Positions 29,428 to 32,483 of a DNA stretch of 44,085 bases are shown here, piece after piece. The position numbers and the translations under genes were made by a program. The stretch's first letter is position 1; every line of letters starts with the position of its first letter. The notes under the pieces were generated by a model that searched no databases, was not told the origin of the DNA, and saw nothing but the letters and a program-made list of their open reading frames with translations. This DNA comes from an uncultured Bacilli bacterium (GTDB lineage: Bacteria; Bacillota_I; Bacilli_A; RF39; UBA660): NCBI GenBank assembly GCA_947628095.1, contig CANQYO010000005.1, positions 1 to 44,085 of the forward strand, in the 5' to 3' direction.

Positions 29428-29448
29428 GATATGAAAGGAGATTTTATT

Positions 29449-30222
29449 TTGGCTAAACATAAAGTAGAAATTACGGGAGTTAATACAAATGAAATCGAAG
29501 TTTTAACAAGTGAGGAAACAAATATATTATTTCATAAATTTCATGAAGGAGATTTAAAAGCAAAAGAAAGACTTATAAATGGAAATTTAAAATTAGTTTT
29601 ATCAATTTTAAAAAAATATGCATCTAAAAGTGATAATTTAGATGATTTATTTCAAGTAGGAGTAATCGGGTTAACTAAAGCAATTGATAATTTTAATATT
29701 GATTTAGGCCTTAAATTATCAACATATGCTATTCCAATGATAAGTGGTGAAATTAGAAGATATTTAAGAGATAATAGTTTACTTCGAGTAAGTCGAAGTA
29801 TTAAAGACTTAGCATATAAAGCAATTAATAAACGTGATGAACTCACAAATACTTTAGGGTATGTCCCAAGTATTGAGATGATTGCTTCAGAATTAGGAGA
29901 AAATCCAAATGATATTTTATCAAGTATTGAAGCTTTAGCTGACCCAATTAGTATATTTGAACCTATTTATTCTGATGGAGGGGATACGATTTATTTATAT
30001 GAGCAACTTGAAGATAAGAAAAATGATACAGATTTAGAAACTAAATTAGCTTTAAAAAAAGCAATTAATGATTTAACTGAAAGAGAAAGAAAAATATTAG
30101 ATAAAAGATATATAATCGGAAAAACTCAAATGGAAATAGCTAATGAACTTGGAATTAGTCAAGCTCAAGTATCACGACTTGAAAAAAATGCTATTAAAAC
30201 TTTAAAAAAGACTTTAAAATAA
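29449..30222 (+). CDS. sigG: RNA polymerase sporulation sigma factor SigG
   Basis: KHKVEITGVNTNEIEVLTSEE...NGNLKLVLSILKKYASKSDNLDDLFQVGVIGLTKAIDNF...STYAIPMISGEIRRYLRDN...FEPIYSDGGD...GKTQMEIANELGISQAQVSRLEKNAIK. Probable start is TTG 29449, 8 nt after AAAGGAG. Confidence 0.93.
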   Translation: MAKHKVEITGVNTNEIEVLTSEETNILFHKFHEGDLKAKERLINGNLKLVLSILKKYASKSDNLDDLFQVGVIGLTKAIDNFNIDLGLKLSTYAIPMISGEIRRYLRDNSLLRVSRSIKDLAYKAINKRDELTNTLGYVPSIEMIASELGENPNDILSSIEALADPISIFEPIYSDGGDTIYLYEQLEDKKNDTDLETKLALKKAINDLTERERKILDKRYIIGKTQMEIANELGISQAQVSRLEKNAIKTLKKTLK

Positions 30223-30259
30223 AAAAGAAGTGACCATCCAAATAGTCAACTTCTTTTTT
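30221..30259 (+). terminator. Intrinsic terminator of sigG
   Basis: AAAAAAGAAGTGAC...GTCAACTTCTTTTTT. Confidence 0.8.
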
Positions 30260-30262
30260 AAT

Positions 30263-30405
30263 GGTTCTTAAACATTAAGGGGTGATAACTTAAAAATTAA
30301 GTTATCTTCTTTTTTTAAAACAATGAAAAATTTAGTTATTTAAAAAAATTAAAATAAAAAAGAAGCGACAAATTTATATTCATCACCCCTAAAAGTGCAA
30401 GAACC
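30263..30405. mobile_element. MITE-like element (143 bp) with 24-bp imperfect TIRs and 8-bp target-site duplication
   Basis: Left TIR GGTTCTTAAACATTAAGGGGTGAT (30263-30286); right TIR, reverse complement, GGTTCTTGCACTTTTAGGGGTGAT (30382-30405); 20/24 identical. Flanked by TTTTTAAT at 30255-30262 and TTTTTAAT at 30406-30413. No coding capacity. Confidence 0.72.
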
Positions 30406-30427
30406 TTTTTAATTATTTTAGAAAATA

Positions 30428-31825
30428 TTAATTTCCTTTTTTATTTTTAGGTATTTCAAACCAGAAAGTAGTTCCTTTTCCAACATTTGAGATAATACCA
30501 TAATTGAATTTATGAAGAATAAAAATATTTTTTACAATTGATAAACCAATTCCACTTCCAACTGTATTACGTTTATATTTTTTTTCACTTTTATAATATT
30601 TATCCCAAACTTTATCAAGTTCGTCTTTTTTTATTCCTTTTCCTGTATCTCTAATTTCAACACGAACTTTTTTCTTATCTTCTTTAACATTAATATATAC
30701 TTTTGAATCATCACCAGTGTAGTTTATAGCATTACTAATTAAGTTATATATTACTTGTTCTAGTTTTTGTTTATCAGCTTTAATTATAAGCTCATCTTTA
30801 TAATCAAAGATAAATTCATAACTTTTAGTATAAGAGAAAATTTTAAAACGATTTAAAATTGTGTTGATGAGTTTCGTTAAATCTATATCTTCAATATTTA
30901 ATTTATCAATATTACTTTCAAGTTTAGATAAATTTAAGATATCATTTACTAAAATGGTTAATCTATCAACTTCTTCTATAATAATATTCATATTATTTTC
31001 ATGATTAACTTTGTCAGTTTCAAAATCTTTTTCCATTTCAGCATAAGCTTTAATCATTGTTAAAGGTGTTTTTAAGTCATGAGAAACATTACTAAGTAAA
31101 TCTCTTCTTAATTCATCAGTTTTTTTCATAACATCTTTGGCATAATTTAAAGTAGTTCCTAATTCTTTTATTTCTTGAATATCACTGTCAACATTAAAAT
31201 CTACATTATAATTACCATCTGATAAAGCTTTAGCAGAACGTGTTAATTTAGTAATAGGTTTAGATAATGATTTAGAAATAAAGTAAGCAATGATAATAGA
31301 TAAAATAATTACTAAAAATGTAACAATAATTAGTTGATTTCTAAGAGCATCTATTGTTGTATCAATTGGTTCAAGGGAAGTATTTAAGAAGGCATAATCA
31401 GTATCATTTAATTTTATACCATATAGAAGTGTCATATTATTAAATTTAGGATTAATGATTTTTAATTTAAAATAGTCTTTATTACTATTAATAAAACTTA
31501 ATTTTCTTTTTACAACTTTAGAATTTTGAGTATCTATACACCCTTTATTATTTTGAATATTGGAATAAATAGTTTCTCCATTACTTGAAAGCTCAACACA
31601 AAAATCAGTATTATAGGAAACATTCTCAAGAATTGAATCGAAGTTAGATTTACCATAATTGTCTTTAATAACATTTAATGTATCTTTTAATTCATTAGTT
31701 TTATAGTATTCATAGTAATTATTCAAGAAGATAATTTGAAAAATCCAAACGAAAAAAATGATTAATAAGGAAAATATACTTAGATATAAAAAGATTTTAA
31801 AAATTAAACTTTTACTTTTCTTCAT
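30428..31825 (-). CDS. Sensor histidine kinase (HAMP, HisKA, HATPase)
   Basis: Two TMs, HAMP, LLSNVSHDLKTPLTMIKAYAEM, NLISNAINYTGDDS, DTGKGIKKDEL, GSGIGLSIVKNIFILH. Confidence 0.95.
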   Translation of the reverse strand: MKKSKSLIFKIFLYLSIFSLLIIFFVWIFQIIFLNNYYEYYKTNELKDTLNVIKDNYGKSNFDSILENVSYNTDFCVELSSNGETIYSNIQNNKGCIDTQNSKVVKRKLSFINSNKDYFKLKIINPKFNNMTLLYGIKLNDTDYAFLNTSLEPIDTTIDALRNQLIIVTFLVIILSIIIAYFISKSLSKPITKLTRSAKALSDGNYNVDFNVDSDIQEIKELGTTLNYAKDVMKKTDELRRDLLSNVSHDLKTPLTMIKAYAEMEKDFETDKVNHENNMNIIIEEVDRLTILVNDILNLSKLESNIDKLNIEDIDLTKLINTILNRFKIFSYTKSYEFIFDYKDELIIKADKQKLEQVIYNLISNAINYTGDDSKVYINVKEDKKKVRVEIRDTGKGIKKDELDKVWDKYYKSEKKYKRNTVGSGIGLSIVKNIFILHKFNYGIISNVGKGTTFWFEIPKNKKGN

Positions 31826-32483
31826 AGATAAATTTATATCCTATACTTCTAACTGTAACAATTAAATCACGGTATTTTCCCATATTATTACGAAGAATTT
31901 TTATATGCGTATCAATTGTTCTTTCATCACCATAAAAATCATATCCCCAAACTTTACTTAAAATTTGTTCTCTCGTAATTGCAACATTTGGATTTTTAAC
32001 AAAGTAGGCGAGTATATCAAATTCTTTAGGTGTAATCTTAGCTTCTTTATTATCAATATAAAGAACTCGTCCTTTAAAATCTAATTTAATTCCTTTATAA
32101 GTAAAAATATCTTCTTCATAAAACTTATTACATCTTTTTAAAATTGCTTTTATTCTAGCTACTAATTCTTTAGGAGAAAAAGGCTTAGTTAAATAATCGT
32201 CTATTCCAATTGAAAAACCAAAAAGCTTGTCATATTCTTCATTTCTAGCACTTAAAACAATAGTTGGAATATTATATTTTTCTTTCATTTTAGAAAAGAA
32301 GGTATAACCATCCATTTTAGGCATCATGATATCAAGAATTATTATATCAATATTCCTAGTTTCTAAAATTTCCAATCCTTCAAGACCATTACAAGCTTCA
32401 AAGACATTATAATGTTCATTTAAACAATATTCTTTTACAACATGTCTTATTAATTCTTCATCATCAATAATTAAAACATTCAT
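31812..32483 (-). CDS. OmpR-family response regulator
   Basis: NVLIIDDEELIRHVVKEY...IIILDIMMPKMDGY...LSARNEEYDKLFGFSIGIDDYLTKPFSPKELVARI plus winged helix; overlaps the kinase gene. Confidence 0.95.
   Translation of the reverse strand: MNVLIIDDEELIRHVVKEYCLNEHYNVFEACNGLEGLEILETRNIDIIILDIMMPKMDGYTFFSKMKEKYNIPTIVLSARNEEYDKLFGFSIGIDDYLTKPFSPKELVARIKAILKRCNKFYEEDIFTYKGIKLDFKGRVLYIDNKEAKITPKEFDILAYFVKNPNVAITREQILSKVWGYDFYGDERTIDTHIKILRNNMGKYRDLIVTVRSIGYKFIYEEK

What the first reader, a model, noticed from the sequence alone, without database searches (positions are those of the whole stretch)
30255..30413. MITE with intact 8-bp target-site duplication inserted in the sigG terminator
A 143-bp element (30263-30405) has 24-bp TIRs starting GGTTCTT (20/24 match, with AGGGGTGAT perfect at the inner end). 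It is bordered by identical 8-mers TTTTTAAT on both sides (30255-30262, 30406-30413). The left copy overlaps the T-tract of the sigG terminator. The 8-bp duplication and GG..TCTT ends are reminiscent of ISL3-family elements (family knowledge; assignment is inference). It sits between convergent sigG and a histidine kinase gene, and no transposase is present in the window.
Basis: partly seen in the sequence, partly recalled or inferred. Interest (0 to 1): 0.65.

Follow-up and report, generated by a model that had tools for sequence, protein, structure and literature searches.

The report
ISL3-type miniature transposon in a terminator
The 143-bp sequence after sigG is a real, recently moved miniature transposon that shares its ends with an ISL3-family insertion sequence in the same genome, and comparing 71 ISL3-family insertions shows that this family lands preferentially in the "stop" signals (intrinsic terminators) at gene ends, a habit I found no description of.

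Summary
It is a genuine MITE. The genome holds a 142/143-identical copy (TSD CAAAATTA) inserted inside an older MITE copy, plus two diverged copies. It also holds two copies of an ISL3-family IS, split over contig ends, each with an 8-bp TSD. The IS left TIR equals the MITE left TIR (24/24); one IS copy's right TIR equals the MITE right TIR (24/24). The IS ORF matches PF01610 and NF033550, so the ISL3 guess is supported.

The insertion into the sigG terminator is not incidental. Of 71 TSD-verified ISL3-family insertions in 28 genomes, 41 overlap a strictly defined intrinsic terminator, against 4.8 expected for noncoding positions. In the set collected after the hypothesis was formed: 20/30 against about 1.5. 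IS256 insertions from the same class: 2/16 against 1.9. The TSD usually lies flush with the hairpin foot, sometimes in the loop. MITE and IS ends carry inward-facing terminator-like hairpins.

No relative offers an empty allele of this site. Transposition, and what the transposase reads in a terminator, are inferred. Subscription literature could not be searched.

The parts
30263..30405 (+). MITE body, 143 bp
   Evidence: 142/143-identical copy at G000:C7:24245-24387 with a different TSD; diverged copies C15, C45
30263..30286 (+). left TIR GGTTCTTAAACATTAAGGGGTGAT
   Evidence: identical to the left TIR of the ISL3-family IS at C68 and C2
30382..30405 (-). right TIR GGTTCTTGCACTTTTAGGGGTGAT
   Evidence: identical to the right TIR of the IS copy ending at C8
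30255..30262 (.). left TSD TTTTTAAT, also the T-tract of the sigG terminator
30406..30413 (.). right TSD TTTTTAAT
30221..30262 (+). sigG intrinsic terminator (target of the insertion); its hairpin and T-tract are retained on the left side
   Evidence: fold -11.8 kcal/mol, z -5.9
30284..30316 (+). left inward-facing hairpin GATAACTTAAAAATTAAGTTATC followed by TTCTTTTTTT
   Evidence: fold z -2.8; kept in the other MITE copies
30351..30390 (-). right inward-facing hairpin and T-run
   Evidence: fold z -2.9; terminator scan
29431..30222 (+). sigG, sporulation sigma factor gene upstream
30428..31825 (-). sensor histidine kinase gene, convergent

Best explanation
30263-30405 is a non-autonomous MITE moved in trans by an ISL3-family transposase encoded elsewhere in this genome. 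The transposase acts on the shared GGTTCTT... ends and inserts the element at an 8-bp staggered cut. This family, at least in the Gram-positive lineages sampled, prefers intrinsic terminators: the cut falls mostly in the A/T-tract flush with the hairpin foot, less often across the loop. Here the duplicated 8-mer is the sigG T-tract, so the sigG hairpin keeps a T-run. Inward-facing hairpins with T-runs at both ends of the MITE probably act as portable terminators; in the full IS the left one lies upstream of a promoter-like sequence before the transposase gene, which would shield it from read-through. Shown by sequence comparison: copies, shared ends, TSDs, partner transposase, enrichment at terminators. 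Inferred: trans-mobilisation, cut mechanism, which feature of the terminator is read, and the shielding role.
For: Copies with distinct TSDs; nested copy with TSD CAAAATTA; two IS copies with TSDs AAATTAAA and TAAAACTA and MITE-identical ends; transposase matches PF01610, PF14690 and NF033550; complete relative L143, 1432 bp, TIR 22/22, TSD TAAAAAAT. Terminators: 21/41 in set 1, 20/30 in set 2, 41/71 pooled against 4.8 expected, 36/66 against 8.5 with A/T runs matched; IS256 control 2/16 against 1.9.
Against: No movement observed. The MITE interior does not match the known parts of the IS, so it is not a simple deletion derivative. The IS interior is not fully assembled in this genome, so its intactness here is unproven. 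30 of 71 sites have no strict terminator. Set 1 includes the sites that suggested the hypothesis. The IS256 control is small.
Confidence: 0.85

Rival explanations
1. The terminator association is survivorship, not targeting: ISL3 elements insert in AT-rich DNA generally and only insertions in harmless gene-end DNA persist.
For: Terminators are plausible low-cost sites; foot insertions leave the host terminator largely intact.
Against: Excess holds against noncoding positions within 300 bp (34/61 against 8.3) and against noncoding positions with equal A/T runs (36/66 against 8.5); TSD centres cluster at the hairpin feet; loop insertions interrupt the hairpin; IS256 in the same class shows no excess.
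Confidence: 0.2
2. The MITE belongs to another, unseen autonomous element, and the ISL3 copies merely resemble it.
For: The MITE interior does not match the known IS interior.
Against: 24/24 identity at each end with IS copies in the same genome, same TSD length, same kind of target.
Confidence: 0.05
3. It is a fixed structural or regulatory RNA element (for example an extended sigG terminator), not a mobile element.
For: It folds into hairpins and lies at a gene end.
Against: Copies at unrelated sites with different TSDs, absent downstream of sigG in the relatives examined, no Rfam family.
Confidence: 0.02

Closest known systems
ISL3 family insertion sequences (PF01610, NF033550)
   Same: The partner IS has the transposase domains, GG-TCTT type TIRs and 8-bp AT-rich TSDs; the MITE shares both ends and the TSD length.
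   Different: The MITE has no transposase and its own interior; a preference for intrinsic terminators is not something I found described for the family.
MITEs of bacteria (for example MITEAba12, PMC6382973)
   Same: Short, non-coding, TIRs, TSD, multi-copy.
   Different: Different partner family; here with inward-facing terminator-like hairpins at both ends. ARNold predicted no terminators in MITEAba12.
IS1272 (PMC5678879)
   Same: Targets inverted repeats (potential stem-loops).
   Different: Replaces the target inverted repeat and makes no TSD; here the target is kept and an 8-bp TSD is made.
Group IIC introns (PMC7923331)
   Same: Insert next to the stem-loop of Rho-independent terminators or similar structures.
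   Different: Group II introns, RNA-based retroelements; a different mechanism from a DDE transposase.

Membership tests
MITE | Short, no transposase gene | tested here: met
   143 bp; no ORF of 80 aa or more overlaps it
MITE | Terminal inverted repeats and TSD | tested here: met
   20/24 and 8/8
MITE | Several copies at unrelated sites | tested here: met
   C5, C7 (inner and older outer copy), C15, C45
MITE | Ends shared with an autonomous element in the genome | tested here: met
   24/24 left, 24/24 right
ISL3 family (partner IS) | ISL3-type DDE transposase | tested here: met
   PF01610 89.3 bits (cut-off 23), PF14690 33.9 (25.5); NF033550 181.3 (180); the ORF is cut by the contig end
ISL3 family (partner IS) | 8-bp TSD | tested here: met
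   AAATTAAA and TAAAACTA, paired across contig ends
ISL3 family (partner IS) | Complete, active element | tested here: inconclusive
   Copies are broken at contig ends here; a complete relative is L143; activity not tested
IS1272-type stem-loop replacement | Target inverted repeat lost, no TSD | tested here: not met
   8-bp TSDs present and target hairpins recoverable from the joined flanks
Any transposon | Observed transposition | not testable with these tools
   Sequence data only

The most novel reading that the evidence does not exclude
ISL3-family transposases choose targets by structure: they recognise the intrinsic-terminator hairpin with its A/T-tract (as a DNA hairpin or cruciform, or through RNA polymerase stopped there) and insert at the hairpin foot or loop, placing elements that carry their own inward-facing terminators where they do least harm.
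Probability: 0.65. Interest if true: 0.75.

Novelty: new member of a known kind. Interest (0 to 1): 0.58.

Why it matters
The element itself is an ordinary kind of thing, an ISL3-type MITE. The target rule would matter: it would help explain how ISL3 copies accumulate with little damage, predict where new copies land, and fit a reported ISL3-associated insertion with an 8-bp TSD inside an rRNA terminator of E. faecium (PMC11702846). It would also offer a DDE transposase as a model for structure-guided target choice.

Tried and rejected
Orthologous empty site at sigG/kinase: not available, because both genes have other downstream neighbours in the relatives. A first, loose terminator definition covered about half of control positions and was dropped as uninformative. 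IS6 control through PF13610: mostly below the cut-off or other families, not used. Rfam: only a chance-level match (rli117, 14.3 bits against a gathering score of 87). Many ISL3 loci gave no clear TIR/TSD pair and were left out rather than guessed; three automatic calls with doubtful ends (L187, L242, L251) were excluded by hand. Chance origin and a fixed RNA element were rejected because of the 142/143 copy with its own TSD.

Full report
Observation. The body is 143 bp, its ends match 20/24 as inverted repeats, and TTTTTAAT stands on both sides. The left copy is the T-tract of the sigG terminator hairpin.

It is a mobile repeat. The source genome (1.23 Mb, 81 contigs) has a 142/143-identical copy at C7:24245-24387 and diverged copies at C15 (82%) and C45 (74%). 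The C7 copy has its own TSD, CAAAATTA, and interrupts an older MITE. Taking out the insert and one TSD copy leaves GAAGTGACAAAATTATATTTATCACC, which aligns with GAAGCGACAAATTTATATTCATCACC of the other copies: a filled site whose unfilled form is known. The C15 copy has TSD TAAAAAAA. The C45 copy has no matching TSD and looks older. In the sister genome G009 there is one diverged full-length copy and one right half.

The autonomous partner. Left ends identical to the MITE's left TIR lie at C68:3785 and C2:52130; right ends lie at C4:138-161 and C8:29325. The flanks pair up as 8-bp TSDs, C68/C4 AAATTAAA and C2/C8 TAAAACTA, which I read as two IS copies broken by the assembler. The C8 right TIR is the MITE's right TIR, 24/24. 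The ORF on C68 matches PF01610, PF14690 and NF033550. A complete relative in another genus (L143) is 1432 bp, with TIRs identical over the 22 bases compared and TSD TAAAAAAT. The ISL3 assignment is therefore tested, not recalled. Named relatives of the transposase are 'uncultured Bacilli bacterium' MAGs, several labelled Lapin.

The allelic test. Downstream of the sigG and kinase orthologues in the relatives there is other sequence and no such element, and the two genes are not neighbours there in the stretches read.

Target choice. Joining the flanks of the first eleven sites showed a terminator-like hairpin at or beside each, by eye and by folding. I then defined a strict terminator: a contiguous stem of at least 6 bp with at most one G-U and at least two G-C pairs, loop 3-12, at least 5 T in the next 7. 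Joined empty sites were scored against other positions in the same flanks. Set 2, collected afterwards from other genomes of the class: 20/30 either way; over the 29 sites with noncoding control positions, 19 against 1.5 and 1.8. Matched for A/T-run length: 36/66 against 8.5. Terminator hits come from 20 of 28 genomes. IS256, with 8-9 bp TSDs and from the same class, gives 2/16 (2/15 against 1.9 noncoding); Fisher P = 0.001. TSD centres fall at the 5' foot in 18, the 3' foot in 17, the loop in 5 and the stem in 2 of 42 (its slightly wider overlap rule gives 42 rather than 41). The P values printed assume independent sites and should be read as 'very small'; some printed as 0 by rounding.

How it works (inference). 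The transposase cuts 8 bp apart in the A/T-tract beside the hairpin, or across the loop, so foot insertions duplicate the tract and leave the host hairpin with one. The element's ends are terminator-like too. In the IS the left hairpin (-16.1 kcal/mol, z -5.0) and its T-run precede a promoter-like TAGACA-17-TACAAT (my reading). The MITE keeps an inward-facing hairpin and T-run at each end. In the C7 case an older MITE's end hairpin was itself the target.

Literature. In the open-access library I found no statement that ISL3 elements target terminators. One paper reports an ISL3-associated insertion with an 8-bp TSD inside an rRNA terminator (PMC11702846). Other elements that target stem-loops are IS1272 (PMC5678879) and group IIC introns (PMC7923331). 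Subscription papers and ISfinder were not searchable, so priority is not established.

Verdict. The finding is real and correctly interpreted; the MITE is a new member of a known kind. The terminator preference of its family is the part worth following.

Noticed in passing
L120 (G005:C2:10687-10746): A 60-bp near-perfect palindrome made of two facing TIRs with almost nothing between them; no matching 8-bp flanks. Possibly a minimal, TIR-only derivative.
   Followed up: partly
L137 / L017 (G000:C15 near 9149): The C15 MITE copy sits at the last codons of a gene that I read as endonuclease III-like; the TIR (GGT TCT TAA) would add two residues and supply a new stop codon.
   Followed up: partly
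L005 / L140 (G000:C8, just before 29324): Imperfect tandem repeats of about 33 bp (AAAAAAGTGGCGATTCCGGCTTTGACAGGAACT) lie beside the IS insertion.
   Followed up: no
L123, L126, L130, L133, L135 (G013 C2, C3, C116, C118, C89): G013 has five ends of the same IS, most of them at contig ends, but no PF01610 match: probably a multi-copy IS whose interior was not assembled.
   Followed up: partly
window 29431-32483: The sigG / two-component junction was not seen in the relatives examined, where both genes have other neighbours, so a rearrangement probably happened here.
   Followed up: partly
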